A DNA stretch of 64,000 nucleotides from Plicaturopsis crispa FD-325 SS-3 (lineage: Eukaryota; Basidiomycota; Agaricomycetes; Amylocorticiales; Amylocorticiaceae). Of this stretch, positions 1,538 through 57,094 are shown piece after piece. Made by a program: the position numbers and the translations under genes. The notes beneath the pieces are model-generated. The model made no database searches and was not told where the DNA came from. It was given only the letters and a program-made list of their open reading frames with translations. The stretch covers positions 261,212 to 325,211 of the forward strand of contig KN832567.1 in NCBI GenBank assembly GCA_000827205.1, in the 5' to 3' direction. Numbering within the stretch: position 1 is the first letter of the stretch; each line of letters starts with the position of its first letter.

Positions 1538-2801
1538 ATGAAGTTCGCTGCCTCTGCCGCCGCCTTGCTCCTGGCGTCTGCCTCGTCTGTATACGCGGCC
1601 AAGCACCCAAAGAACGCGCTGATCCAGTCGCGCCAGGCGCATATTCGCCGGGACATCCTCGACGTATGTGCTGCGCTTGATGTCGATCTCTCGCTGCCCG
1701 ATATTCTTAAACACGGTGCGTCCATTATATGGCTGCTGTACCGGTTCTCAGCCTCGGCAAGAGGTAGTGTCTGATAAAATCATTTTTTCCATCCACCAGG
1801 CGAACCCCTCGTGACGGGCCATCTAGATGTCTGCCTGTGCATCTCAGTGCTTCCCACCTTCATCCAGGTCGACGCCGCTGCCCAAGCCGCCGTTGCTCTC
1901 TTGGGTGAAGGCCCAGTCACCGCCACCCTCGAAGCTCTTGTCAGTCCTCCTTTATCTCATCTTCCCCTTCGTCCAAATCTAAATTACGTGCTCGCGTAGA
2001 TCAACGAGCACCCCTCCAGCTCAAAATGCGTCTACCCCCCGCACGCGCACGCTCTTTGCTCCACCTCGTCCCCCTGCTCCTTCAACTGCACCGACGGTTA
2101 CACGCCTTTCCCCGCCTCCAAGCCCACGCAGTGCGTCTGCGCGGCGCCGTACACGGAGTGCAACGGCAAGTGCGGATCCTTCCCGCAAGGCTGCGGGTCG
2201 CAGGCCGCGTCCAAGAAGCGCACCCTGATGCCGCGGTGTGCGCCGGACCAATCGGTGTGCGGACTCCAGGGCGGGAGCGGGTATGACTGCGTGAACACGC
2301 AGAGCGATGTTGAGTCCTGTGCGCATGTTCCCTGACCTGATCTGCGTGGTAGAGGATGCTGACCACAGGGTATACTTACAGGCGGTGGATGCGCTACGCG
2401 CACCCCATTCGGAGCTGCTGCTGCTAGCGGCGTAGACTGCACCGCGCTCCCGCACGTCGACAAGGCCTCTGCGTCGTGCGCTGCGGGCGTCTGCGTCATC
2501 GAGAAGTGCGCGGAGGGCTTCGCTCCGAGTGCGGATAAGACGTCGTGTGCGCCCCTCGTCAAGCGCGATGGCAATGGCATCAACATCGACCTAGACCTCG
2601 ATGATATCCTGAGCAACAACACGATCGACATCCTCGACAACAAGCCCGCCAAGGCCAACCCTGCGTGCAAGCGCGATGGTGCGTTTCGTCTTTCTCCGTT
2701 ATGTTGTGGGCCAGGCTCAATGATTTGTTTGACGTGTAGGTATCAACATTGACATCGAGGCGTCGCATATCCTCGATTGCAACACTATCAACATCCTCTG
2801 A
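1538..2801 (+). CDS. PriA/CPL1-like secreted Cys-rich protein with two C-terminal repeats
   Basis: Secreted protein of unknown molecular function. The CPL1-like domain is known from Lentinula PriA and Cryptococcus Cpl1. Exons read as 1538-1715, 1800-1939, 2000-2318, 2382-2678 and 2740-2801, all with GT-AG introns and consistent phase. The N-terminus (MKFAASAAALLLASASSVYA) is a signal peptide. A Cys-rich middle with a Cys-Asn-Gly-Lys-Cys stretch is followed by the family block GGCATRTPFG, then GVDCTALPHV and a C-x-x-G-x-C-x-I-x-x-C-x-x-G-F pattern. Unusually, the tail after LVKRDG carries two copies of the NINIDxxxxxIL...NTIDIL-type repeat that builds the next three secreted genes. The last intron interrupts the glycine codon of KRDG, exactly as in those genes. 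The domain call is from memory of the family; the repeat link is seen directly. Confidence 0.85.
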
Positions 2802-3167
2802 TCGCGTTTCCAGGATTTGCATGGACACTATTTTCTTTATCATCTTTTTCGGTTGTGTGACTTACATGGGCTGTGGAAGAGTACTATCTAATGTCCATCG
2901 CGTACTCCTACTAATTTCAATACAACTGTTTGTTGAACTATTAGCTCTCGTGTCAGTGAACATCGTCCTCACAACGCTATATTCGCGACTCACTGTCTTC
3001 GACAGACTGAGTCTGAGACAGATGCAGCAGCACAAGGCCAGCCACACAGTCCCAAAAAGGCAGGTCTCGTATTAGTTGAGGTTTTGCCGCCGCCACACCC
3101 CTCTCGACGTCATTCTGCGTCAGAGAGCACAGGACCTGCTCTCCAGCGCCAACGGCTGCCTCGTAAA

Positions 3168-3174
3168 TATAAAG
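3168..3174 (+). promoter_or_regulatory. TATA box of the small hydrophilic protein gene
   Basis: TATAAAG about 130 bp before the ATG at 3300. The rest of 2802-3299 holds the upstream gene's 3' region and this promoter; no other gene is visible. Confidence 0.6.
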
Positions 3175-3299
3175 GGGGGCGAGGACGGTACGAACCGCCC
3201 ATTAGCGACGAATCCCCCAACCACCTACTGCCAAGTTCTCACACCTTTTACAACCACCTGAAATAAATAAGACCACTCCGAAAGAACTCTCATATTAGC

Positions 3300-3852
3300 A
3301 TGGCATCGTCGCAAACCGCACCAACAGGCGCTGAAACCGCCGGCGTGCACCCTTCCGCAGTCGGCTCCGCCGCACACCCTGCGCCCTCCAACGCCGGTAA
3401 CGACTTCACCGAATATCCAGAACAGCGGCACGCAGGCGCCGTCGGGCTAGGGCCCGACTTTGCCAAGGGCGCCGTAAGTCCCCCCACATCGCCTTGACCA
3501 CTCATAAACTGCGAACGAGACTGACACGGGGTTGTAGGGCGTAGGCGACAAGATTGCGGGGCTGAAGGAGCAGCTGGTGGGGAAGGTGAAGAAGGACCCG
3601 GCGCTGGTCGAGCACGGGAAGCAGCGCAAGACCGGGGAGCTGAACAAGAACAGGGAGCCGGTGCGTTTCATCCCTCTACGCCTCCTCGCACGCATGGATA
3701 CTGATGTTCGGTGTGTGCAGGAAGCGGACCCGTTTGCGGGGCCGGAGGAGAAGGGCGGGAAGGAGCAGGCGGCTACTGTCGCGCCGGAGGGGTCTGCCGA
3801 TGCGGAGGGTCAGCGGTCGGGTGAGGCGGGCGCGGGTACGAAGACTATCTGA
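3300..3852 (+). CDS. Small hydrophilic conserved-looking protein, 142 aa
   Basis: Three exons (3300-3473, 3538-3660, 3721-3852), all introns phase 0. The product is about 142 residues, without signal peptide or membrane segment. It is rich in Gly, Ala, Glu and Lys. The middle exon encodes an amphipathic Lys-rich stretch (GLKEQLVGKVKKDPAL), and the C-terminus is acidic with repeated Gly/Glu. I do not recognise a named family. The composition resembles small stress-related basidiomycete proteins, but that is only an impression. It sits between two secreted repeat genes on the same strand and shows none of their repeats. Confidence 0.75.
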
Positions 3853-6165
3853 AGCGCCGGCTCGGTAACGGGTCTGGTTGCGCGCAGTGTATGGCTGTCG
3901 CGAACGCTGGATCGGAGGAGTGTATAACAATGTATCCATAGTGGATTTGTATGATTATCATTATGTTGTGACTCACCGTCAGTTCTCGAGTTCTCTTGTC
4001 GTGACTTCCGCCTCGATGAATAGACTTGTCACTAAGCACTTTTTGCCAGTGGCTCTGTAGCATGATGTCCGCCGTATTAACCAGTAGCCCTCGCTCGATG
4101 AACATTCCAAGTGAATATGTTGCGAACATGATCACACCGTGGGCATAGCTCGAGTGGGAAAATAACTGTGTGACCCTCTAAAATAACCCGGCGTTAACTG
4201 ACCATGGCGGACATGAAGGTAACGTACACTGCTCTGATATCAGCGATGTCGGGAAAAGCGCTGCTCGGAAATGGCTATATTGCACAGGCCTGTATGAACA
4301 CCTTCTTTGAATGGCGACTTATACCAGAATCAGAGAGGCATTCCCTTTGTTTTCCTAGACGATTCCAGGATTAGTTTTCGACTCGCCCGATCAGCATTTC
4401 GTTGAATGAGCGCACCTGTGACTCGGACGCCTCCGTGGACGTACGGAGAGAGTTCACGGATGAGAATCCGTGCGCGTTTCTATGAAGGCTCGAGCTCGGC
4501 GTACGAGAAAAGACGAAACGCGGCGTTAGCCCTTCATCAGAGCGTGCAATCTCCTTTCAGCCTCCTTCCGCGGACCTGAACACCATTATTCATCCTGACT
4601 TTCCGGGTGTACGTGTAGTTGCACAAGGGAAAAATACGTGTGAGCGCGCAGAACGTTGCACATGGATAGGAGAGACCTTGGAACGCGCCCAGAGCAATCC
4701 TAGAGGAGCAAAACAACTCGGAGGAGGAGGAGGACAGGAGGAGGATGAGTCTTGAGGACGGAAGCAATCTGAGTATACTTAGGAAACAAGGTTTTCGCTG
4801 CGTCGGGAACTCTTGTGCTCTCAATTGATGCCGGTGCGCCGCCGCCGCGCAGTCGTTCTTGAGAATTTTGAGTCCGGACTCCGTAAACCATCCGTGATAT
4901 GTCCGTCAACTTTTCGACGTCGACGTCGAGCGCGACGACGAGCTCTGACTCTGGTGGGCAGCCTGCGGGCACAGCGCTGGACTTCGCCACGACTCGGATG
5001 GACTCAGCCACGATCTGGTGCCAAGAGCCTTTCACTGGCGTCACCCTCTATACTTAATATCGATCGTTCCGCTTTCAAAGTTCGCTTCCTTTTTCCTTGA
5101 ACTCTGCGTTTTCTCGCCGGCCTTTTGGTGAGTCTCCATACCCAGACTTGTGACAGGAACAAGGAGGGCTCTGGCTGAAATCGCGCAACTGGTTTCCCGA
5201 CGATGCGGGACCAGAGGATGTTGAGAGGATGTACATTGCTAGTAAGCAATTGTATCCAGTCAGTGTCACATTCCCTGGCAATCCACCGAGCGTTCTGCTG
5301 CGTTCTGATCCCTGATCGTCTCTGATTGTCTAGGTCTGTCGACTCCGAACGACGCTGGAGAAACGACTCGAATACGCGTTGTCGTGAATAGGCACGCGTA
5401 TTCTCCTTTTTGTGGCGACATTCGTCGCAGAAGACGAGGCACCGTTCGTACCACGATCATCCCGCCAATTGCCTTCATGGAGTCACTGCAACCCGGTCGT
5501 GCATTCGTATCCTCATGCCGCATAGAAGTGCGAGCCTTTGCAAGCACCGCGGCGAAAACGCTTCGATTCCTTCTCACCATGTCTTCGTCGTTCCATCGCA
5601 CCCGAGCTTGCTTTCCTACTCCACTTCTTCTTTGCGCCTGGCGTCAAATTGTCTTCTAGCCAGTTTAACCATTTCGAAAATTGCGCTAGAGATCGTGCCA
5701 AAACGCACATGGATTTGCCTGTGTAGAGGCTTTCTGCGCTCTAATGCCGCCCCTTGAAACAGTTACTGGCCAAGTACGCTGTCGAACACGCTCGGTGTTG
5801 CCTTTTCGTGCAAGTAGGCACGTACTTTCCAGCGACATTCCCGCTGTCCTCGCTCCACTGAAGCGCCATTTTATACACTCAGCTCGCTCCTTGGCGATCC
5901 AGTGCGCCTCTGCCATCACCTTGCCGCGCATTTTTTGCGGCGTTGGAGTCGCTCGTGCGTGGCTGGGAAAGGGATTGGAAACTGGAATACTATTTCTTCG
6001 AGATCGGTCGCTCACATGTCGAATAAACTTTGCGTTTTCTTTGGATTTCGGGCATGTCGCTGGAACGACCGTCGAGAAGTGCCTGCGCCACACCCGCGCG
6101 GCCTGCAATTTTTTAACATTGCCTCGCGTCGGGAACGCGTACAAGCACGAACAACGCCGCCCTTC
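3853..6165. other. Long intergenic region, no supported gene
   Basis: More than 2 kb without a convincing gene. Open frames on both strands (for example 4700-5044 minus and 5744-6427 plus) lack splice continuity or run into the core promoter of the next gene. The right part is probably an extended promoter of the repeat gene at 6289. Confidence 0.5.
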
Positions 6166-6172
6166 TATAAAG
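6166..6172 (+). promoter_or_regulatory. TATA box of secreted repeat gene 2
   Basis: TATAAAG about 117 bp before the ATG at 6289, followed by a CT-rich leader. Confidence 0.7.
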
Positions 6173-6288
6173 ACCTCATCCCGACTTGCTAATTTCTTCA
6201 CTCAACTCGTTGACTACTCTACTTTCAGTTCCTCTCTCTCTTTATTCCCTTCACCCGTTCCCTCACCCCCCACAGTCGTTTTATCACA

Positions 6289-7797
6289 ATGTTCCCCTTC
6301 GCTAGCCTCACCGTCCTCGTCACCCTCGCTCTCACCGTCTCGGCAGCCCCGTGGGGATCCCAGCCCGGCCAGAGCCAGACCAACTGCCCCTCGAAGCGCG
6401 ACGGTCAGTTCCGCGTTTTTTGTTTGATTTGCTGTTCACTGACGCGTGTTTCTAGGTATAAATGTCCCCATTGGCGTTAACTGCGTCGGAGACGGCAACA
6501 CAGTCGACGTCCTCTCGCGCCGTGGCGGTATCAACATCCCCATCGACGTCGTTGACTCTCTCGATGACAATGTCGTGAACGTCCTCAGCGGCCGTAGCGG
6601 CATCAACATCCCGGTTCTCGTCAATGACGTCTTGAACGACAACGACGTCGAGGTCCTGAGCCGCCGTGGTGGTAAGTATTAGCGTATGCACTATGTAAAA
6701 TGCTAGGCTAATCCCATCCTTGCGTACGCAGGTATCAACATTCCCATTGTTGCCACCAACGACTTGAACAACGATGACATCGAGATCTTGTCGCGTCGCG
6801 GTGGTGTCAACGTCCCGATTGCAGTCGTCGACGACCTGGACAACGACGTGATCAATGTCGCTAGCAAGCGCAGCGGTATGACCTACACACACACTTTATT
6901 CTGCATCCCGCTCATTGCTCTCTCAATTGCTCAGGCATCAACATCCCCGTTCTCGCTACTAATGTTGCGAACAACAACGACATTGAGATCCTGTCCCGCC
7001 GGGGCGGTGTGAACGTGCCTGTGGCGGTCCTCGACGACTTGGACAACGACGTCATCAACGTCGCCGAGAAGCGTAGCGGTAAGCGTTCGCTATTATCTAC
7101 ATATATCACTCCTCTCATTGTGCATCTCTCCATCAAACAGGTGTGAACGTCCCCGTCGCCGTAGTCGACGACGTGGACCAAAACGACGTCGAGGCCCTGT
7201 CTCGCAGGGGCGGTGTCAACGTTCCCGTTCTAGTCTACGATGCGCTGGAAAACAACGTCGTGGACGTCCTTCAAAAGCGAGGTGGTTAGTTCAAGTTCTG
7301 TTTCCCGTAAGAAATTTGGGCACTCAGAACTCGTTCTCAGGTGTCAATGTGCCGGTACTCGTCAACGATGTTGCCGACCAGAACACTGTCAACGTCGCTA
7401 GCAAGCGCTGGGGCTCGCACCCTGCGCCGGCCGGCCTCCCCGCCTGCCCCAGCAAGCGTGACGGCAGTACGTCCATTCACCCTTATGCACTTGATGCACA
7501 CTCACGTTATGTCCTACCCTAGTCAACGTCCCGATAACCGTGGACTGCATCCTCAACGGCAACGTCATCCACGCCCTCAAGCGCGACGGCATCACTATCC
7601 CCGTCCTCCTCGACGACGTCCTCGACAACGACACCATCAACATCCTCTCCCGTAGCGGTGTCAACGTCCCGATCGATGTGATCAACTCGGCCAATGCAGG
7701 CACCCTCAACGTCGCGTCTCGCAGCGGCGTTTTCGTGCCCGTCGACGTCACTGACGTTGCTGACAACAACGTCGTCAACATTGCGTCCCGGAGCTGA
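6289..7797 (+). CDS. Secreted repeat protein 2 (about 14 repeats, dibasic boundaries)
   Basis: Predicted 387-residue secreted protein of unknown function. Seven exons: 6289-6403, 6456-6671, 6732-6875, 6935-7078, 7141-7284, 7341-7466 and 7523-7797. The first encodes a signal peptide (MFPFASLTVLVTLALTVSAA) followed by PWGSQPGQSQTNCPSKRDG. The rest is an array of about 24-residue repeats of the type GINIPIDVVDSLDDN followed by a short beta-like stretch and SRRG or SKRS. All introns are phase 1 and cut the glycine codon, or the codon after it, at the repeat boundary. Middle exons are exactly 216, 144, 144 and 144 nt, that is 3, 2, 2 and 2 units of 72 nt. Twelve of about fifteen repeat boundaries carry KR or RR. 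A second WGSHPAP...CPSKRDG block restarts the pattern at exon 6. A Cys occurs in the first repeat after each block. No family name is known to me. Confidence 0.85.
6456..7794 (+). repeat. Tandem 72-nt coding repeat array of gene 2
   Basis: About 14 diverged in-frame units with consensus [SK][RK]xG[IV]N[IV]P[IV]xVxDxxDN followed by xVxxL. The units are split by introns at their borders, so they duplicated as symmetric exon modules. Confidence 0.8.
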
Positions 7798-9041
7798 GTG
7801 TTCGTGCCCAACGTTGCTACAAACGGTGCGAACTCAGTAAAATCTCTTTTCTAGTGAGTGCTTGCCTGTTTCCGCAAAATGCTTTGCGCTGACATTGCAA
7901 TGCTGTTACTAGACGATGTCGTTGCTTGCCTAGTCTCGGTCTCTCGTTTGTGTTGTCTAGCCCGGCCGTACACGCTTTAGCATTGTTATCCCCATCGCTA
8001 TCATAATAATAATACCCATCGCTTGTCCATCCAAATGCAAGTTCCCTCATAGCTGTCGGCTCAAGTGAGTTGTAAATGAAGTTGCTGGACATGCGTGCCG
8101 TGGGCGCACCTAATATCGTATGCCTGTTGATATGCCTGTTTACTTGCTCTGATGAAAACCTCAACCTTCCGCCATTTACTTATACATGTGGTCACAAACA
8201 CCCTGCAGAAACGGGCAGACGTTTCCTCAAATGCAACTACTGTATACACATCATTTGACCTGCTCCCGGCCTCGACGTCCATGGGCCAGTTCATCGCCGC
8301 CTACCGCCGCTCTCCTTGTTCTCCGTTGAAATGCGTTGAGCGCTGAGCGTACGTTCGCACCCTGAAATCGCCCCTCTGCCGTCACTTGCGCGTCCATCTC
8401 TGGGATGTTCCGTCAAGATTTACAAAAATACAAGGCCCTTCCCAGGAGGGACTCGACCAGGACGCCGGGGATACGGACGCCTGCCTGTCGGACTTCACGG
8501 AAGTTCGAAGCACAACACACAAAAATTTCACACTTTGCCGAGGACGTACTTCGGACGCCTTCTGCAATTTGTGTCTCATGTTTCACGTTCTTCACGCCGG
8601 CGACATATTAGCATCGTCCCGAAATCGTCACGGCCCCACAGCGTCGTGCTGGCGACCGTCTGGCTGCGCACCGAAGGTCCCTCGTCGCGAGCGAGTCGGT
8701 GGTGCGCACGAGCGCGAGCGCAGCGGGACGTGGTCTTGCTGAACGCGCCGCACAGCGTTCTGGGCGCGTAAAGAGGCATTAGAAGACCTCATAAACGGCC
8801 TGAGAACGCCTTGCGTGGCGGTAAGGGTCGCGATGTGAAGCAGTGCCGAGTAAGCAAAACATAATGACTTCGGCCCCGGAGCACCCGCTGCTAAACGTTC
8901 ACGTCTTCTCAATTTCAGCGCGGACTTCTTGGCTTGCCTCGCAGCACTCCGCCAGCCGGGCGTCCTGGAGCGGCAACGAGATGTATGACATATGAGGCGC
9001 CGTGCGGCAACCAGGATGCACAATACCCCCGTCCGTCCGAG
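7798..9041. other. Intergenic, no supported gene
   Basis: Contains the 3' region of the gene ending at 7797 and the promoter of the next repeat gene. Short open frames on both strands overlap one another, start mostly at non-ATG codons and have no recognisable product. Confidence 0.5.
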
Positions 9042-9050
9042 TATATAAAG
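9042..9050 (+). promoter_or_regulatory. TATA box of secreted repeat gene 3
   Basis: TATATAAAG about 120 bp before the ATG at 9168. The spacing matches the other genes of the cluster. Confidence 0.7.
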
Positions 9051-9167
9051 CTCGCAAACTGTTTCTAAGTTCTTCATTCCGCCGTCCTAGACTTACTTTA
9101 CCCCCTCTAAACGCCTCGTTTCTTTCCGTTCACCGTTCACCGAACACCGCACAGTCTTTCATTTGCA

Positions 9168-10591
9168 ATGTCTACCTTCGCTAAGCTCACCGTCCTCATC
9201 ACCCTCGCCCTCAGCGTCTCCGCTGCCCCCTGGGGATCCCACCCCAAGCCCGCGTGCAAGCGCGATGGTACGTTCTATTCAGTTTTTCTACGCGTCGTTG
9301 CAGATTCCAATTCTTCTTTTGGTAGGCGTTAACGGCGTCGTCGACGTTAACTGTGTTGCCGACAACAACAATGTCTCCATCCTGTCTCGCGATGGCATTA
9401 ACGGCCTCCTGGGTATTACCGATGTCCTCGACAACAACAAAATCAGCATCCTCTCTGGCCGTGACGGCATCAACGTTGGTGCCCTCGTCCACGATGTCGC
9501 CAACGACAACACCATCAAGGTGCTGAAGCGTGACGGCATCAACGCCCTCCTTGGCGTCACCGATGTCCTCGACAACAACAAGATCAGCATCTTGTCCCGT
9601 GACGGTATCAACGTCGGCGCGCTCGTTGACGGTGTCCTCGACGACAACACCATCTCCATCCTTAAGCGTGACGGCATCAACGTCGCTGCCCTCGTCCACG
9701 ACGTCGCTGACAACAACAAGATCGCTGTTGGCGGCAAGCGCGACGGTATCAACGCCCTCGTCGGTGTCACTGATGTCCTTGACCACAACAACATCAGCAT
9801 CCTCTCCCGCGACGGCATCAACATTGGTGCCCTCGTCGACGGTGTCCTCGATGACAACACCATCTCCATCCTCAAGCGCGATGGCGTTAACGTTGCGGCT
9901 CTCGTCCACGACGTCGCCAACGGCAACAACGTCAAGGTCCTCCGCGACGGTGTCAACGTCGGTGCCCTCGTGCACGATGTTGCCAACGACAACAAGGTGT
10001 CGGTGCTGAGCCGTGACGGTGTCAACGTTGGTGCGCTTGTCCACGACGTCGCCAACGACAACAAGATCTCCATCCTCAAGCGCGACGGTGTCAACGTTGC
10101 CGCGTTCATCCACGACGCGATCAACGGCAACAACGTGAAGGTTGCCAGCAAGCGCTGGGGCTCGCACCCCAAGCCTGCGTGCAAGCGTGACGGTACGCCC
10201 TTTGCCATACCTTTCTTTCCTCTTGTGCTGACCTGAGCATGGTATAGGTGTCAACGGTGTCGTCGGTGTAGACTGTGTGCTCAACGGAAACACCGTGTCT
10301 GTCCTCTCGCGCGACGGCGTGAACGTCGGTGCCCTCGTCCACGACGTCGCCGACAACAACACCGTCAAGGTTCTTTCTCGCGACGGTGTCAACGTCGGTG
10401 CCGCTGTCGTCCACGATGTCGACGGCAACGTCGTCAAGGTCCTTTCCCGCGATGGTGTCAACGTCGGCGCCATCGTCGACAACGTCGCTGACGACAACCT
10501 TGTCAAGGTCCTCTCCCGTGACGGCATCAACGTCGGTGCGCTTGTCCACGACGTTGCCAACGACAACACTGTCAAGGTCGCCTCCGCGTAG
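9168..10591 (+). CDS. Secreted repeat protein 3 (about 17 repeats)
   Basis: Predicted 436-residue secreted protein. Three exons: 9168-9267, 9326-10192 and 10248-10591, with phase-1 introns inside the KRDG glycine codon. The signal peptide (MSTFAKLTVLITLALSVSAA) is close to that of gene 2. It is followed by PWGSHPKPACKRDG, then 12 repeats of 22-24 residues in exon 2 (INVGALVHDVANDN then TIKVLKRDG). The block SKRWGSHPKPACKRDG recurs at the end of exon 2, and five more repeats follow in exon 3. The protein is therefore two head-to-tail modules, each starting with a Cys-containing leader and a Cys-containing first repeat (VNCVADNN, VDCVLNGN). Eight of about 18 boundaries are KR; the rest are SR, GR or LR. 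Alternating hydrophobic residues plus Asn-rich turns suggest a beta-solenoid or stacked beta structure (inference). No enzymatic motif is visible. Confidence 0.85.
9326..10588 (+). repeat. Tandem 66-72-nt coding repeats of gene 3
   Basis: Repeats alternate between two flavours, one with LLGVTDVLDNN and one with VGALVHDVANDN. This suggests that a two-repeat unit was amplified. The array keeps long frames open on the opposite strand, but those are shadows. Confidence 0.85.
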
Positions 10592-11881
10592 GGTCGCTCC
10601 ATAGGTTCGTCGCTTACCATCTGCTTCGGTTGCGAATCTTACTGACGCGGCCACTAGCTTTTTGTTATGAGTTATGACCGTTATGCTTGCGATTCCTTGA
10701 TTTTGGTTCTGACACGTCTCGATCATCCTACGGCCTTATACTTGCTCTGCGTACACATTATCCAAATAATTATTTCTCTCTTTACTCTTCCCGTGTTTGA
10801 ATCTTGAGAGCGTGTGTTGTGTCTTGGTTACTGGAAGTCTGCAGACGGCTACTCTCGCTTGCTCGCAAGGCGCAGAGACCTTGACGTTGGATTGCCTTTT
10901 TGGGTGGAGTAGATTCGACTTTGCGCATTCCGCTTGGAAAGTTTGCTTGCCCGATGTGTCCTCGTCTGTGTTGTTGTCCTGGTCAGCTGCGATGCGCTTG
11001 ACGAAAATCCTCAACGTGTAGACGACGGCATCGCTGCACGTTCACCGCAGCTGTCGCACTCTATTTCGTGACATCGTGCTCGACTCGGAGTCGTTGAAGC
11101 CGTCCCGATTTTTTGTCGCGTTTCGCATACGATCGGCCGTCTGCTCGATTAATATTCCTATGGGCAAGTAAGTTTGCGGTAACCTTGCACGACTACAGAA
11201 AGCCCGGGCCCATCGTACTATGGCTACGACGACGCTGCCAGTGCGACGCTACGGATGCGCATCGCTGTCGATAGGTATTTTTCAGGTATTTGGGCTTTCA
11301 CGCGGCGATGGCGACACTTAGAATCATCACCGCTATATGACAACGTCATACGCACCCGGGATCAAGTAATATTTTACAGGGCTGACCGTTCCAGTGACTA
11401 CGGAATTGGCACGTTCAAGGTGGCTGAACTTATTCTCAGTGCCATGGTCCCCAGGCAGGTCGGGATCGTCTCTGGTCAACGCAACCTGGAGGGCTGTTCA
11501 TTTCTAATTACGAGGGGAAAGACGCTGGCAGGGCTACGACAGGACAAGACGCCGCATTTCTACAGTGTACACTTGCGGCCCGGGACTGCTGGTAGGCGAA
11601 TCTCCGAAATTTAATGCCTCGCCGGTGGCGCGCGTCTCGTATGCAGTAGGGTGAACGGAATAATAGAAGCGCAGCGGAAGTTGTGACGTTCGTCCTTCAC
11701 CTCCTCCGCGATGCAAAAGAAGGTATGTCAAATCATATTGGGTAGCGATGTAGGCTCCACACCGCCAACACGCGCAGCGTACACGGCTCTTCACCGTTCT
11801 TCACGCAAATTTTATCGATGGCTGCAGGTCCCACTGGTCCCTGCAACCTTCGCTCGGGTAGTGAAACCCATGGCGAAGGCG
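10592..11881. other. Intergenic, no supported gene
   Basis: About 1.3 kb. An ATG-started frame of 119 codons at 11255-11614 has no recognisable motif and no supporting splice pattern. Probably the 3' region of gene 3 and the upstream region of gene 4. Confidence 0.5.
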
Positions 11882-11889
11882 TATAAAAA
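11882..11889 (+). promoter_or_regulatory. TATA box of secreted repeat gene 4
   Basis: TATAAAAA about 118 bp before the ATG at 12007, followed by a CT-rich leader as in the sister genes. Confidence 0.7.
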
Positions 11890-12006
11890 CCAGCAATCCT
11901 CCGTTACACCTCCTCATCCGTCCCTCTTTCCCTCTCTTCTCTGCCACCTTCCCATCCCTTCAGACTTTTCAGTCTCCCCACGATCTTTTCACCTAGACTC
12001 ACCGCA

Positions 12007-13298
12007 ATGCCTTCGTTCGCCGCCCTCTCCCTCCTGACGACCCTCGCCTTTGGCGCTTTCTCCGGGTCCTCCGCCGCACCTCTTAGCGGCGTGAACATCC
12101 CCGTCGACGTCCACAACGTTGCCAACGGCAACAAGGTCGGCATCCTCTCCCGCGATGGCATTAACGGCCTCGTCGGGATTTCCGATGTTCTCGATAACAA
12201 CAAGATCAGCGTCCTTAGCCGCGACGGTGTCAACGCCGCGGTCGGTGTCCACAACGTTGCCAACGGCAACAACGTGAAGGTCCTCCGGGACGGCGTTAAC
12301 GTTGGGGCTGGTGTCAACCACGTCCTCGACGGGAACACCGTCTCCATCCTCGGCCGTGACGGCTTGAACGTCGGCGCGCTCGTCGGCGACGTTGCGAACG
12401 GGAACAATGTGAAGGTCCTTCGGGACGGTGTTAACGTTGGCGCGGCAGTCCACAATGTCGCCAACGGAAACAACGTGAAGGTTCTGCGGGACGGTGTCAA
12501 CGTTGGTGCTGGTGTGCACAACGTTGCGAACGGCAACAAGGTCGGCATCCTCAGCCGTGACGGTATCAACGTTGGCGCCGCCGTCTCCGATGTCGCCAAC
12601 CAGAACCAGGTTGACGTTGCGTCCAAGCGCGCTGCCGCTCCCCGTGCCCTGGTCGTCATCCTCGCGGACGTCTCCGCCAAGATCGGTCCCTCGGTTCAGA
12701 AGCTTCGTGAGTGTTGTCACGCCCATAACATCTTTCCGGTGCTGATATTGTCCCTCTTCAGAGTACGCCACCGGTGCCAACGCGACTGTCGATGCTATCA
12801 CCCCGGTTGTCGCTGACATCAAGGTCGCCATCGGTGCCAGCGTTGAGGAAGTCAAGGCCCTTGTTGGCAAGCCTCTTAGCCTCATCCTCGCCTCTGTCGA
12901 TGGTGCTGCGCAGGTCACTATCAAGGAGCTCTCCACCCTCATTGCCGGCCTCGTCTGCGTACGTCTCTGCATCTCGGCCGGCTGTGCGGTTTGCTGATCC
13001 TGCACTCTGCTACAGTTCATCTTCTCCGCTGTCGGCGCGACTCTCAAGGCCGTCAAGGGTGATGTCGCTGCTCTGATCCCCGTCCTCGCTGTTGTTGGGT
13101 AGGTAGTTCCCTCTTACAGGGAGGAAACACTTTCTGACCTTGTCGTGCAGCCAAATCGTCTTCGACCTTCTCACCGCCATCTTCGTCCTCGTCGATGGTC
13201 TCAAGGATGAGGTTGTCGCCCTCGTCGGCAGCATCAACCCCATTGTGATCCAGCTCAAGATCACCGCCCTCATCCAGCTCTTCGGCATCCAGGTCTAA
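12007..13298 (+). CDS. Secreted repeat protein 4 with hydrophobic C-terminal domain
   Basis: Predicted 375-residue secreted protein. Exons 12007-12706, 12762-12958, 13016-13098 and 13151-13298. A signal peptide (MPSFAALSLLTTLAF... to SSAAP) is followed by eight repeats of the cluster family (VNVGAAVHNVANGN, NVKVLRDG) in one uninterrupted exon. The repeats end at SKRAAAP. The second half, about residues 220-375, is different: Ala, Val and Leu-rich amphipathic helices (ALVVILADVSAKIGPSVQKL and similar) that look like a small helical bundle seen in some basidiomycete secreted proteins (weak recall). Only one repeat boundary is dibasic (KR), at the junction with this domain. Kex2-type cleavage there would separate repeat array from helical domain (inference). 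Confidence 0.82.
12082..12633 (+). repeat. Eight tandem coding repeats of gene 4
   Basis: In-frame units of 22-23 residues of the form DGVNVGAxVHNVANGNNVKVL. They are nearer to the repeats of gene 3 than to those of gene 2, and lack introns between units. Confidence 0.8.
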
Positions 13299-13792: not shown

Positions 13793-15183
13793 TTAGTACG
13801 ACTCAAATTTACCAGATATCGAACGTACCGCCGGGTCCTTCTTCCATCCGTAGAAACTACCGAAATCTAGCGGTACAGTGTCGAGCGGCAGGCCTTTCTT
13901 AACGCGGTTTGCGAAGTCCGGGTTGTTGATCCATTTGCGGCCGTACGCTAAGACGTCGACTTTCCCATCGGTGATTAGGGACGTGGCGTCTTCTAGTGGC
14001 ATCTGCGCAGAGGGGGTCAACATGGCGAACAGAATTGCAGCGTATACACGCACGTCGCCGATACCGTTAACGAATAGCAAAGAGTTTTTGATCTTCGGGC
14101 GGAAGGTGCCCAGAAGGTCAAATCTCGTGGATCGCGGTTTTCCTGAAAGAATTCATGCTTAGTATAAAGCCACGAGAATAACAAGACGATGAGTCAAAAC
14201 ACACCGTCAATAATCTGCTCGAGAGCGTCGCTGTTGATGAAGACCTCCACATACGCCAAGCCAAGCTTATCCATCTCCTCGAACAAATAGGTGTACGTCT
14301 CCAAAGAATCGTCCAGAGACATGCCGACATCGTTAAGGCCTCCTCCGGGCTGCACCTTGATACCGACACGATCGGCGCCAAAGACGCTTATCACCGCGGC
14401 AAGCGTCTCCAGAGTAAAGCGGCAACGGTTTTCCGCAGAACCGCCCCACTTATCGGTGCGCACATTAGAACTCTTGTCGAGGAATTGGTGCGGGAGGTAT
14501 CCGCCACCGGCTTGGAGCTGAAGGAATGCTCGTGAAACAAACTAGCAGGATGGAGTGTCGTGGTACATACCTCGATTCCGTCGAATGAGGCATTCTTAGC
14601 GTGAATGGCGGCTGCCTTGAATTCTTCGATGAGAACGGTTGGGTCCTCGATGGCTACCGGTGTCGCATAGCTAGTACCGGTAAGGCGTTGGAACCGTCCT
14701 GCATCGGTATCACGAGCAGGGATCGCGGAGGGCGCGTAGATGGGCTACAGAAATTGAATGCATCTTAATGATCGTTCCGCCATCGAGCATAATGATATTG
14801 CAAATCACCTTCTTGTCCGTTTTATATTCTTGCGCATTCGTGTTTATGAGCCTCCCGAAATGCCATAGCTGGCAGAAGATCAGTGAGCCCTCCTTGTGCA
14901 CGGCGTCGGTGATCTTTTCCCATTCGGCAGCCTGTTCAGCGTTCCATATACCGGGGACATTTGCCCACTCGGAGCCCTGTGAGCTGATAATAACTCCTTC
15001 GCTGGCGATGAGGGAGACCCCACCCCTGGCACGCTGCGCATAATGCTCAGCCATTAATTGGTTGGGCAGGTTGCCCACAGCGCGATTGCGCGTCATGGCG
15101 CTCATCGCAAGACGGTTCTTGAGGACAAGGCCGCCCGGAGACTTGGAAAGCGGGACAAGGGAGAACAAAACATCGAACGTCAT
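13793..15183 (-). CDS. Old Yellow Enzyme-like NADH:flavin oxidoreductase
   Basis: Predicted 403-residue FMN-dependent ene-reductase, the usual length for the family. Exons on the minus strand: 15183-14809, 14744-14571, 14517-14205 and 14142-13793. The order of family motifs is preserved: an N-terminal VLKNRLAMSAMTRNRA block, AEHYAQRARGGVSLIASEG, QLWHFGRL, PSAIPARD, then the barrel motif GGYLPHQFLDKSSN leading into RTDKWGGSAENRCRFTLE. Near the C-terminus come DVLAYGRKWINNPDFANRV and a closing FYGWKKDPA. The catalytic-site motif usually written H-x-x-N-G-Y is changed here to L-Q-A-G-G-G-Y, so substrate handling may differ. No signal peptide, so probably cytosolic. The physiological substrate cannot be told from sequence. 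Confidence 0.9.
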
Positions 15184-16499
15184 GGATAGGAGGATTGCGG
15201 GGGGTAGCGGTCTCTTGGAGCTGCACTGGCGAGCCCCGCACAAGAGATATAACTGTTTTATAAGTGGCGGCCTTCTCCAACTTGGGTAGTGCGAAACTCA
15301 CCGTCGGGAGCCGGTGCCATGTATCTGCACTTACTAACTGACCTGGTACAGGATGGCACAGTATCAGTACGTTTTCTCACACTTGGAACGTACCGACAAA
15401 GCGTTGCTGCGATTGAGGCATGCTATCTGAGATAAACGAGCGCACTTCCGTAAGCAGTTCTGTAGTATGAATCAGCAGAACCGGGATGCCTGTATATGTC
15501 GCATAAAATATTGAGCAAAGCACTTGTTTCAGGCCTTCCGGGGCCGTCGAACTAGCATTACTGAGATCTGAGAGTCGGCGCTTGCATGTCTCCGCGATGC
15601 AATCATTTGCTAGCGTAAGGCAACGGCTTGCGAGGTGCATTCGGAATCATTCTAATTTCTATCTCACGATTTAGCTGGCGCACGAACGTACGGGAGACAA
15701 CGCTCACTTACTCCAATGCCATGTTGGCTGTTGGGCTCCCTTAAGACCATAAGGGAGAGCATGCACCAAATGTATGCAGATCAATCGTAGAATTGTAGAG
15801 TCCAACGAGATCTGTGTAAATGTATACAGTATCTTGCGTTAAAGTACCAACCAGGGACACACGGTAGCCGATAGTACTAGTGGCGAGTCGCAGTACTGCC
15901 TTTCATGCATACATGACGAAGTGGACGCTGACATGCTTTATCTGTGATCTGATAGAGGTGCAGGGTATCAGATAGGTGCTCGGAGAAGTTAGGGCAATAC
16001 GCACCTACAACTACTACAAGTACTTGCACGCTTAACAACATACAACCCTGGCCAGCTAAGTGGCAATCGAGTGAGTATCTCTTGGGCGTCTTTCTCGGAG
16101 CATAACTTGACCATGAGACACCGAATTTGAACTTGTAAGGCGGCTAGTTTGGGCGCTAAGTTTGCTTCAAGTTTGCAGACACCCGGACGGCATGAGAGTG
16201 CGATGGCGCTTGGTGCACAGGTACTATGCTTGCTGTGTCTTGAATAGACGCTGGAGAAGGCACACAGCATGGAAAACGGATAAAAAGAGCTCAGCAAAGG
16301 TCCAATGGCGAAAAAAACACCAACGGACTCGAGAATCGAGTCAAGCAAGTGGTCCCAAAGAAGCATCGCCCCTGAAGCGCGGCAGATATAGCGAAAAGTT
16401 TACCCCAATCTCGCCCAATTTCCCTCACCGTTCCTGCTCTCGCGCTTGCCTTCATACTTTTCTTGGGTCCCGTCAACCCAGTGGACTACTGCGCCAACT
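15184..16499. other. Intergenic with a doubtful minus-strand gene
   Basis: Two minus-strand frames could be exons of an unknown gene. One is at 16366-15989 (Cys/Ser-rich, no ATG at the natural start). The other starts at an ATG at 15640 and runs to about 15397, where a GTACGT donor-like site follows QSQQRFV. I could not join them into one convincing model and recognise no family. The region also holds the divergent promoters of the flavin oxidoreductase and ARG5,6. Confidence 0.3.
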
Positions 16500-19510
<3,011 letters not shown>

Positions 19511-44259: not shown

Positions 44260-45456
44260 CTAGCACGCAGCCGTGGGGGTTTCGAACAGAGAAGAGTCGT
44301 CCAAGAACTGGGGCCACTCGTTCCAGAGATCGGTGGGCGCGCTGGGTTCCACGGGCGCGGCAGTGAAGTCGCAAGAGGCCAGAGCCTCGGCAAACAGAGC
44401 CTCTACATCATCAAGTACGGGGGCCTGCGGGAATGTCCAGAGACTCTCGTCTTGAGAGGGCGAGTCGACAAGAGCAGGGGAGTTCGCTGGGTTGGCGGCA
44501 GGAGCAGCCCACGTCCAGAAGTCGCAGTCCATCGCGTCGGAAACGGGGGGTGCGACGCCGCACGCGTCGAGCATGTGCGCGGGCAGGAAGTTGCTGCCAT
44601 CGAAGGCCGGGGTGAAGTCGTACGCAGTGGACTCGGCGCATGCGCGCGACACCTCTTTGAACCAAGCATCCATGGCAGCGGGATCGTGTGGGGAGGGAAC
44701 AGAGGATTCCGCGATGACGGGAGCCGAGAGGGAGAATTCGCCAAACCAGGAGTCCATTGTGTACAGGTCCGCGTCCGAGAGCCCACAGGATACGGGAGCA
44801 TCAGGCAGAGAGAGGGAAGAGCCAGAGCCAGAGGACAGAGAGGTGGAGGAGCCGGATGCATCTGAGGAGAGGTAGAGCGAGGAGTGTGCGGACTCTGAGC
44901 TGTCCGTGTCGGTGTCCGAAGACGCAGGCGCCGCGTAGGGTGTGTACCGAGCGCTCTTCCTTCCGGCACGGCGACGAGGACCTTGCGCACCCCGCTTGGG
45001 CTCGTACGCGTGCACCCGCTTCCTGTGGCGCGTGAGCGAGCCCGGGTCTGCGGTTCTGTAGTCGCAGTCCGCCTCGGGACATGTGTGCGGCTTCTCCCCC
45101 GTGCTAAATATGTCGTCAGAAAAGGTTGACGAGCGCGTGTTGGATAAGACTCACTGTACGTTCATGTGGCTCCGCAAGTTGCTGCGCTGGAGCGTGCTGT
45201 AGGTGCAATCCGCGACGGGGCACTGGTGTTTCCTATGATTATCTATGTCAGTGTTACCCTGTACATGAGTGAATGAGACTACGTACAAGGACTCCTTGTT
45301 AGGAGAATGAATCTGTCTGTGCCGCGACATGTCGGTCTTGGCGCTGAGGTGCTTCTGGCATATAGCACAGAACACGGAAGATGACTGTGTGAAAAACCGT
45401 TAGAGAAAAGTAAATGGCCACATGCAAGGGGCGGGACGTACGGCAGATGAAGACAT
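44260..45456 (-). CDS. C2H2 zinc-finger transcription factor, copy 1
   Basis: Predicted DNA-binding regulator. Exon 1 is only MSSSA (45456-45442). The following exons encode three classical C2H2 fingers: CAICQKHLSAKTDMSRHRQIH; CPVADC...HMNVH; and, after the TGEKPH linker, CPEADC...HRKRVH. A basic Arg/Lys stretch follows (RGAQGPRRRAGRKSARY), probably a nuclear localisation signal. The long C-terminal half is acidic and Ser/Trp/Phe-rich, with repeated short patterns such as MDSWFGEFSLS, MDAWFKEVS and DLWNEWPQFLDD, typical of activation domains. It is a paralog of the gene at 56037, with the same tiny first exon and the same finger-interrupting introns. Its target is unknown. Confidence 0.88.
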
Positions 45457-55165: not shown

Positions 55166-56036
55166 CGTGGGCGAGAGGGAAATGCAGCTCAAGTGTGCCG
55201 TCACGCTTCTGGGCGATATTCAGTGTCACAAATGTCACACTAGGTTCGGTTGTCAACGAGTCACACCACCATGCTTCTCGAGACTCGTAAGTAGTCGTTG
55301 AACGTTGAACGTTGACCTTGCTGTTTTTTTCTTTGCAAACGACAGTGTGAAGGATGGCTTTCGCAATCATATCATTCACGGGCATGAGCACTATGGAACG
55401 AGGATTTGTACACTCCAGAGTTTCACATATCGCCATCGCATGTCTTGACACCGTCAGACCTGATAGTACTCAACGTCGCGGCGCTTACTTCCTCCTACTA
55501 CTTCCATCACCACATTTCACGCGAAACTGGGCTTTCAATACAGTCAGTCGAGGCTCAACATGGCGCCGCATGACAAAGTTCCCCACTGCTCTAGTAGTAG
55601 CCAACCCAAAATCGCTTTTCGCTCGACGACTTTGCCAACGCCCTGCCTTTTCGGATGATTCGTTCAGTGACCTCACTGAGCCACTCGGCTAGCAAAACCT
55701 TCCCCTTAAGGTAGATTTGCGCGTCGGTGAGCCACAGTGCGTCCGAGCCAATTCACCTCACTGCGGTTACTTTGAGCCACTAGAACTTTTTAGGAGATTC
55801 CCGCTGCCCCTTTGGCCGTTTGTCAACCTGCCATTGCAGGTAAAATTGCCATAGCACTCGCATCAACTGCTTTGAGGCAGTGAGGTCAAAGCGTCCATCT
55901 GAAATGTATAAAGAGGGGGCGTTGGAGGGGACATATCGTCATCCCCAGAGCCCCCAGCCTTGGTATATTCACAAAAGTCTTCTCCTGCACATCGTTTTTA
56001 CTCCTCGCACGCACATCTGCAACTACCTCAGCCGCA
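55166..56036. promoter_or_regulatory. Promoter region of zinc-finger copy 2 with GTGGCTCA-type motif array
   Basis: Inverted equivalent of the region upstream of zinc-finger copy 1. CACTGAGCCACTCGGCTAGC at 55671-55690, then GGTGAGCCAC, CCGAGCCAATTC and TTGAGCCACT follow in the same order and similar spacing as the copy-1 motifs. A TATAAAGAGGGGGCGTTGG core at 55907-55925 matches the copy-1 core closely. The left part (55166-55600) is the HMG-gene upstream flank; an ATG-started frame at 55354-55692 there is not supported. Confidence 0.65.
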
Positions 56037-57094
56037 ATGTCTCCCTCCGTACGTCCGCTCCATTGCATGTGGCCATACGCTCTTCTCACGGTCCCTTGTT
56101 CCCAGTCCGCTACTGTACTTTGTCCCACGTGCCAGAAGCATTTCAGCGCCAAAACGGATATGACACGGCACAGACAAACTCATGCTCCCAACAAGGAGTC
56201 ACTGTGCGTATTATCAGTTTGCCTCCATTTCTGCCATTTTCCAACGTGCACTACAGGAAGACACTGTGCCCGTTCGAGGGCTGCAGCTATAAGACCCTTC
56301 AGCGAAGCAACCTCTTAAGTCACATGAATACACAGTACGTATGGACTCAGCATACACTGGGGCCTATACTAAGGATTGGTTTTAGCACGGGAGAGAGGCC
56401 TCACGAATGCACCGAGTGTGAGTTCAGGTCCGCGGACCCAGGCTCTCTCACTCGTCACAGGAAGGCAGTGCACGGATACGAGCCTAAGCAGCGTGGTCAA
56501 GCCTCTGCTCGCAGTGTCAGCAGGAAAAGTGCGCGGCATGAGCCCTCTGCAAGCTCCAAGACTTCAGTTACCCCAGGCGTCAACGCGGACTCATCAGCTC
56601 TGCTGTCGCTCTATTTGTTGTCGGATGTATCCTCTTCTTCCCCGTATCTGCCATCGTCTCGCTCATCAGTTTTGGATTTTTCTCCTTCGCGTGCTTCCCC
56701 TGCAGCTCCTGCATCACCTTCTGGACCTACCGCTGCCTTTTCTGACGCTGACCTGCACATCATCAAATCTTGGTTCAGCGACTTATCGCTTTCGACTGGC
56801 CCCGCGGATGGGTGTGCCTCTGCTCGATCAAATTTCGACGACTGCGTTTCATTAGGCGCCTGGTTCAGGGACGTGTCGTCTGCAAGCTCTCCCGTTGACG
56901 CGCTTTCCTCTATAAAAGCGCCGCTGCTCCCTTCCTGCGAAGCCGCCCCCGCACACATGCTGGACGCTTCGGGTTCCTCCCTGCCTGTCGAAGAGGTAGT
57001 TGAGTGCGAACTCTGGATGTGGGACTCGGCCACGCCAGCTACAGATGCGCCTCATTTCTCCGCCTTGTCCGCACTCGTCGTCTCGTCCCCGTAA
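56037..57094 (+). CDS. C2H2 zinc-finger transcription factor, copy 2
   Basis: Paralog of the gene at 44260-45456, in opposite orientation. A tiny first exon (MSPS) is followed after an intron by finger 1 (CPTCQKHFSAKTDMTRHRQTH), finger 2 (CPFEGC...HMNTH) and finger 3 with a TGERPH linker and C-x2-C spacing (CTECEF...HRKAVH) instead of the C-x4-C of copy 1. The basic stretch (KQRGQASARSVSRKSARH) and the acidic Ser/Trp-rich tail are kept but strongly diverged: IIKSWFSDLSLS, LGAWFRDVSS and AHMLDASGSSLPVEEVVECELW align with copy 1. It ends SALSALVVSSP. Likely nuclear transcription factor; targets unknown. The finger cores are conserved while the tails have drifted, as expected for duplicated regulators. 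Confidence 0.88.

What the first reader, a model, noticed from the sequence alone, without database searches (positions are those of the whole stretch)
1538..13298. Four-gene cluster of secreted proteins built on a shared 22-24-residue repeat
The genes at 1538, 6289, 9168 and 12007 all lie on the + strand and have signal peptides and TATA boxes about 112-120 bp before the ATG. They share one repeat type (R-x-G-[IV]-N plus an Asn-rich turn plus a short beta-like stretch) but combine it differently: CPL1 domain plus 2 repeats, about 14 repeats, about 17 repeats, and 8 repeats plus helical domain. I know no named family for this repeat. It looks like a local expansion of a new extracellular or cell-wall protein family.
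Basis: partly seen in the sequence, partly recalled or inferred. Interest (0 to 1): 0.9.

Follow-up and report, generated by a model that had tools for sequence, protein, structure and literature searches.

The report
Fungal secreted beta-repeats with Kex2 sites
Four neighbouring fungal genes encode proteins, apparently secreted, built from one 23-residue repeat; in two of them likely protease-cut sites sit between the repeats, so they look like precursors of small surface peptides, a known fungal kind with a new-looking repeat.

Summary
Spliced models give four proteins of 331, 387, 436 and 375 aa with 2, 14, 17 and 8 units, 41 in all. Profiles built without the tested gene recover G2, G3 and G4 strongly; G1's two units are borderline. 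No Pfam family covers the unit above its cut-off.

All 21 in G2-G4 lie at unit or block edges: 12 in G2, 8 in G3, 1 in G4, between repeats and helical part. [quoted passage not shown] The unit is amphipathic, strand-turn-strand by pattern. AlphaFold2 gives a G3 stretch a helix-free beta model (pLDDT 85.7), but is known to overpredict such folds, and the G2 run was poor (51.6). Copies differ more at synonymous than other sites, so the sequence is constrained.

Best reading: repellent-like surface peptides, as in Ustilago Rep1/Hum3, with site density varying by gene. Secretion, processing and assembly are inferred. Fungal proteomes could not be searched, so novelty of the unit is open.

The parts
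1538..2801 (+). G1: exons 1538-1715, 1800-1939, 2000-2318, 2382-2678, 2740-2801; 331 aa; CPL1-like domain (aa 201-268), then two repeat units, each preceded by KR
   Evidence: model; PF21671 64.7 bits against a cut-off of 27.4; units; borderline in the held-out tests
6289..7797 (+). G2: exons 6289-6403, 6456-6671, 6732-6875, 6935-7078, 7141-7284, 7341-7466, 7523-7797; 387 aa; 14 units in two blocks (10+4), 12 dibasic sites
9168..10591 (+). G3: exons 9168-9267, 9326-10192, 10248-10591; 436 aa; 17 units in two blocks (12+5), 8 dibasic sites
   Evidence: AlphaFold2 of 9328-10143 pLDDT 85.7, pTM 0.84
12007..13298 (+). G4: exons 12007-12706, 12762-12958, 13016-13098, 13151-13298; 375 aa; 8 units, one KR, then a hydrophobic C-terminal part that looks helical by eye
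   Evidence: C-terminal part has no Pfam match above its cut-off
7409..7548 (+). second block cap of G2 (WGSHP...C-PSKRDG...C), interrupted by a phase-1 intron 7467-7522
10156..10276 (+). second block cap of G3 (WGSHPKPAC-KRDG...C), interrupted by a phase-1 intron 10193-10247

Best explanation
G2 and G3, and in part G1 and G4, are secreted precursors built from an amphipathic strand-turn-strand unit of about 23 residues. A Kex2-type Golgi protease would cut after the dibasic sites: G2 mostly into single 23-24 residue units, G3 into pieces of 1 to 5 units, G4 once (freeing an intact 8-unit stretch from a hydrophobic part), and G1 between its CPL1-like domain and its units. The pieces then self-assemble by beta stacking on the hyphal surface, as reviews describe for Rep1 peptides of Ustilago, and change wetting or attachment. 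Shown here: the units, the positions of the dibasic sites, the amphipathic pattern, constraint on the amino-acid sequence. Inferred: secretion, cleavage, beta assembly, surface role.
For: Units and held-out profiles. Of 21 dibasic sites in G2-G4, 18 directly precede a unit's anchor Gly; the other 3 end a unit, before the WGSHP spacer (2) or the G4 C-terminal part (1). G2 has 12 sites against 1.97 expected on shuffling and G3 8 against 3.69. P4 is aliphatic or Pro in 20 of 21, the Kex2 preference a review gives (PMC8528282, passages), though the unit is aliphatic there anyway. G2 (13) and G3 (9) pass the four-fragment KEP rule and, by local BLAST, the rule of one fragment similar to two others. 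Columns 2, 4, 6, 8, 17 and 19 are 90-100% hydrophobic and hold no charged residue; columns 3, 9 and 18 are 2-15%. AlphaFold2 of a G3 stretch: pLDDT 85.7, pTM 0.84, 22 strands in about 12 units, no helix. Constraint: within-gene medians pS 0.50-0.59, pN 0.30-0.37; G3 units 4-5 against 7-8, dS 0.75, dN 0.05. Rep1 and Hum3 are described as amphipathic repeats with Kex2 motifs between, Hum3 followed by a hydrophobin domain (PMC4617103, passages).
Against: [quoted passage not shown] The G2 run gave pLDDT 51.6, pTM 0.36. Foldseek found no match at E 0.001 or better in PDB or viral models. The hydrophobic alternation is not perfect: column 7 is 59% and columns 11, 12 and 20 are 83-98% hydrophobic. 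G4 has 1 dibasic site against 1.75 expected, no excess. Twenty unit edges have only a single Arg (3 in G2, 10 in G3, 7 in G4), with Ser or another residue at P2 and so no canonical Kex2 site. By my stricter global measure no fragment reaches 70% identity with two others. Kep knockouts in Coprinopsis gave no detectable phenotype (PMC9769878, abstract). No expression, cleavage or assembly data.
Confidence: 0.5

Rival explanations
1. The proteins stay whole and act as elongated beta-solenoid wall proteins or adhesins; the dibasic residues are just turn residues.
For: G4 has no dibasic site among its 8 units and no excess of them; 20 unit edges in G2-G4 carry only one Arg; the confident G3 model is of an uncut 272-residue stretch; weak resemblance to curli CsgA for G3 and G4 (18.3 and 19.6 bits, cut-off 160).
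Against: In G2 12 dibasic sites against 1.97 expected, all at unit or block edges; domain edges in G1 and G4 also carry KR. The CsgA resemblance is thin: a helicase model scored higher on the G3 stretch (24.1 bits), the G2 stretch had no hit, and CsgA also matched 1 of 8 column-permuted controls at 11.5 bits, none of 2 plain shuffles.
Confidence: 0.2
2. The released units are signalling or antimicrobial peptides rather than structural ones, as may hold for other KEPs.
For: G2 gives eight 24-residue fragments; KEP functions are called largely unknown and a role towards the biotic environment is suggested (PMC9769878, abstract).
Against: Unit-bearing fragments are imperfect copies of 23 to 115 residues; the pattern is amphipathic with Asn at fixed positions, more like an assembling peptide; no STE13-type XA/XP start after the cut sites (by eye).
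Confidence: 0.2
3. The array is a low-constraint tandem repeat spread by slippage, without function of its own.
For: Tandem arrays of near-copies; G3 units 4-6 and 7-9 repeat one three-unit order (by eye).
Against: Within-gene medians of pS above pN; pN exceeds pS in 23 of 255 within-gene pairs; dN/dS 0.02-0.21 in the six comparisons that printed, picked for likeness and partly overlapping.
Confidence: 0.05

Closest known systems
Rep1 repellents and Hum3 of Ustilago maydis
   Same: amphipathic tandem repeats separated by Kex2 motifs; Hum3 joins repeats to a hydrophobin domain (PMC4617103, passages), as G4 joins them to a hydrophobic C-terminal part
   Different: units of 31-55 aa there, mostly 22-24 here; the G4 part has one Cys and no Pfam hydrophobin match; Rep1 and Hum3 sequences were not compared
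Kex2-processed repeat proteins (KEPs)
   Same: leader (by eye), repeats, dibasic sites between repeats, 13 fragments in G2 and 9 in G3
   Different: imperfect repeats; 20 edges with a single Arg; G4 (2 fragments) and G1 (5 dissimilar fragments) do not qualify
Curli CsgA
   Same: repeat of about 22 residues with strand-turn-strand and fixed Asn (curli side recalled); weak profile hits for G3 and G4; CsgA 8c50 is rank 13 at E 0.54 in Foldseek
   Different: far below the cut-off of 160 bits; no hit for the G2 stretch; no relative of the G3-type unit confirmed in prokaryote genomes
CPL1-like domain proteins (PF21671)
   Same: G1 carries the domain (64.7 bits)
   Different: G1 adds two repeat units behind KR sites; G2-G4 have no such hit

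Membership tests
KEP | secretory signal peptide | not testable with these tools
   hydrophobic leaders seen by eye in all four; no predictor available
KEP | at least four fragments after cutting at KR/RR (PMC6339444, passages) | tested here: met
   G2 13, G3 9 and G1 5 fragments; G4 has 2, not met
KEP | at least one fragment similar (70% identity, length difference under 30) to two others (PMC9769878, passages) | tested here: inconclusive
   local BLAST over 15 or more residues: met by 4 of 13 G2 and 3 of 9 G3 fragments, by 0 of 5 G1 and 0 of 2 G4; by a stricter global measure met by none in any of the four
Repellents (Rep1/Hum3) | amphipathic repeats with Kex2 motifs between | tested here: met
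   by pattern in G2 and G3, not by homology; not met in G4, which has no site between units
Repellents (Rep1/Hum3) | sequence homology to Rep1 or Hum3 | not tested
   those sequences were not in hand
Repellents (Rep1/Hum3) | peptides form surface-active amyloid-like fibrils | not testable with these tools
   needs bench work
Curli CsgA | curated CsgA score cut-off | tested here: not met
   18.3 (G3) and 19.6 (G4) bits against 160, no hit for G2; no curlin row in Pfam at E up to 10 for the four proteins
Chaplins (PF03777, number recalled) | Pfam chaplin profile | tested here: not met
   no such row for any of the four proteins at E up to 10; HMMER's filters drop most weak matches
Hydrophobins | eight-Cys pattern (recalled) | tested here: not met
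   G2 and G3 have four Cys each, G4 one; Hydrophobin_2 11.3 bits against 24 for G3
CPL1-like | PF21671 above its cut-off | tested here: met
   G1 only, 64.7 against 27.4
Beta-solenoid fold | stacked strand-turn-strand rungs | tested here: inconclusive
   G3 stretch pLDDT 85.7, G2 stretch 51.6; AlphaFold2 bias known; coordinates were not seen

The most novel reading that the evidence does not exclude
One beta-forming unit is used in four neighbouring genes as a graded assembly kit: Kex2 site density sets piece length (G2 single units, G3 short oligomers, G4 an uncut 8-unit rod tied to a hydrophobic part), so that G4 and G1 act as anchors or nucleators for the peptides of G2 and G3, a fungal counterpart in logic to the curli subunit and nucleator pair.
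Probability: 0.15. Interest if true: 0.75.

Novelty: new variant of a known kind. Interest (0 to 1): 0.45.

Why it matters
If right, it ties a small, regular beta-type repeat to Kex2 processing in four linked genes and makes the idea of repellent-like coats in such fungi directly testable with 24-residue synthetic peptides. It would also give one possible job to some of the KEP genes, whose functions are called largely unknown (PMC9769878, abstract).

Tried and rejected
The window's own genome: none held. Relatives elsewhere: 84 pattern matches in prokaryote genomes and 44 and 26 in viral contigs, none confirmed by tblastn; no match in plasmids (G3 only). Phage and E. coli records were not searched. 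Fungal proteomes are not among the collections.

Twelve unit strings were searched as letters in the paper library: 2 and 8 papers, all unrelated by title, none opened. Word searches for chaplin-like, priA/CPL1, repellent, beta-solenoid, CPL1-like and functional amyloid papers showed nothing on this repeat in their listings.

Weak profile rows are taken as artefacts of repeats and composition: Pfam rows all below cut-off (best E 6.6e-05), NCBIfam rows far below cut-off (best E 1.4e-05, a helicase), and PHROGs rows for G3 (10; best phrog_29975, unknown function, 33.1 bits, E 1.1e-07, with no single stretch passing) and G4 (2). Only NCBIfam had a control (rows in 5 of 10 permuted or shuffled proteins, best E 0.023); the PHROGs and Pfam rows had none. 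PDB sequence searches gave nothing below E 0.3. Nine introns at unit edges: 1 of 36 pairs passed z 2.5, so no sign of recent exon copying.
Full report
Observation. The four genes are open, spliced frames on the + strand: G1 1538-2801 (331 aa), G2 6289-7797 (387 aa), G3 9168-10591 (436 aa) and G4 12007-13298 (375 aa); all 15 introns are GT..AG. They hold 2, 14, 17 and 8 units, 41 in all. In the 41-unit alignment the anchor Gly is in 41, Asn 3 in 39 and Asn 15 in 36. Profiles built without the tested gene recover G2 (212 bits), G3 (403) and G4 (192), against shuffle maxima of 13.3, 6.8 and 6.6; G1 scores 6.3 with a shuffle maximum of 7.5. With the composition correction off, whole G1 scores 16.4 bits and its tail 23.3; none of 2000 shuffles of each reaches these (1120 and 1944 were given a score). 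One other weak hit was found in six frames of the window, 9.1 bits, E 0.025.

Gene structure. Nine introns lie at unit edges in G1 (1), G2 (6) and G3 (2). All nine are phase 1, and 8 of 9 split the anchor Gly codon; the last of G2 is one codon later. The other three introns of G1 and the three of G4 lie outside the units. G2 has three successive exons of 144 nt, two units each. G2 and G3 each have two blocks, each opened by a cap with a Cys, KRDG and a second Cys; these four are the only Cys of each protein. The leaders of G2 and G3 are near-copies and that of G4 similar, by eye.

Dibasic sites. G2 has 12, G3 8 and G4 1. Of these 21, 18 directly precede the anchor Gly by three residues, and 3 end a unit before a spacer (2) or the G4 C-terminal part (1). 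On shuffling the expected numbers are 1.97, 3.69 and 1.75: a clear excess in G2, about twofold in G3, none in G4. G1 has four KR/RR sites: after its leader region, before the CPL1-like domain, and before each of its two units. P4 is aliphatic or Pro in 20 of 21 G2-G4 sites, as a review gives for Kex2 (PMC8528282, passages); there is no control for this and the unit is aliphatic there. Twenty further unit edges carry a single Arg. Cutting in silico gives G2 13 fragments, eight of them 24 aa, and G3 9 fragments of 11 to 115 aa. The published KEP similarity rule is met by 4 of 13 G2 and 3 of 9 G3 fragments with local BLAST (one is enough), but by none with a global measure.

Fold. Columns 2, 4, 6, 8, 17 and 19 are 90-100% hydrophobic without charge; columns 3, 9 and 18 are 2-15%, columns 5 and 16 are 24 and 20%, column 7 is 59%, and columns 11, 12 and 20 are 83-98%, so alternation holds in the two strand stretches with exceptions. 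AlphaFold2 on a G3 stretch of about 12 units, with seven other window stretches as alignment, gave pLDDT 85.7, pTM 0.84, strands and no helix. On four G2 units it gave 51.6 and 0.36, with eight short strands. AlphaFold2 is reported to give confident but unrealistic solenoids for perfect repeats (PMC11795689, abstract and passages); these repeats are imperfect and the presumed inward columns carry no charge, but coordinates were not seen, so the fold is likely and not shown. Foldseek gave 168 PDB and 370 viral rows to E 10, none at 0.001 or better (50 rows of each were shown). VIA-align was not available.

Constraint. Within-gene medians are pS 0.585, 0.495 and 0.573 and pN 0.369, 0.316 and 0.300 for G2, G3 and G4; pN exceeds pS in 4 of 91, 18 of 136 and 1 of 28 pairs, and between genes in 12 of 136 (G3-G4) and 59 of 378 (G2 or other pairs with G2). 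Chosen close copies show stronger constraint: G3 units 4-5 against 7-8, dS 0.75, dN 0.05; G2 units 4-5 against 6-7, dS 1.89, dN 0.11. These pairs were picked because they look alike, so their ratios lean low; three of the six comparisons overlap and one (G3 14 against 17) is not significant (p 0.056); the G4 comparisons failed to print.

Known families. No Pfam family passes its cut-off for the unit; only CPL1-like does, in G1. CsgA hits are weak (18.3 bits for the G3 and 19.6 for the G4 stretch, cut-off 160; none for G2), and a helicase model scores higher on G3; one of eight column-permuted G4 controls matched CsgA at 11.5 bits. One PHROGs family of unknown function reaches E 1.1e-07 on the G3 stretch with no single stretch passing; no control was run for it. 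Rep1 and Hum3 are described as amphipathic repeats with Kex2 motifs between, and Rep1 peptides as amyloid-like fibrils on hyphae (PMC4617103, passages; PMC8528282, passages). A KEP survey reports 7878 KEPs in 1345 of 1461 strains (PMC7329392, passages); its tables were not read, so this family may be listed there.

Verdict. A real repeat family. In kind it is known (KEP, repellent-like by pattern in G2 and G3); in unit, layout and graded site density it looks new as far as these searches reach, which does not include fungal proteomes.

Noticed in passing
window 3300-3852 (+): Probable small three-exon gene (142 aa, hydrophilic) between G1 and G2, open with GT..AG introns; no Pfam match at E up to 1.
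   Followed up: partly
window 14710-15297 (-): Open-frame piece matching NADH:flavin oxidoreductase (PF00724, 92.8 bits).
   Followed up: partly
window 17517-18674 (+): ORF with an N-acetylglutamate synthase NAT domain (181 bits) and a semialdehyde dehydrogenase domain (85 bits), probably an arginine-pathway gene.
   Followed up: partly
window 44260-45015 (-) and 55880-57094 (+): Two ORFs with similar H-x-YEPK and Ser-rich stretches, by eye; possibly dispersed zinc-finger paralogues.
   Followed up: no
window 9535-9948 (+): G3 units 4-6 and 7-9 repeat the same three-unit order, a super-repeat of about 70 aa (by eye; coordinates).
   Followed up: partly
window 12630-13298 (+): The hydrophobic C-terminal part of G4 (167 aa, one Cys) has no Pfam match above cut-off; what it does is unexplained.
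   Followed up: partly
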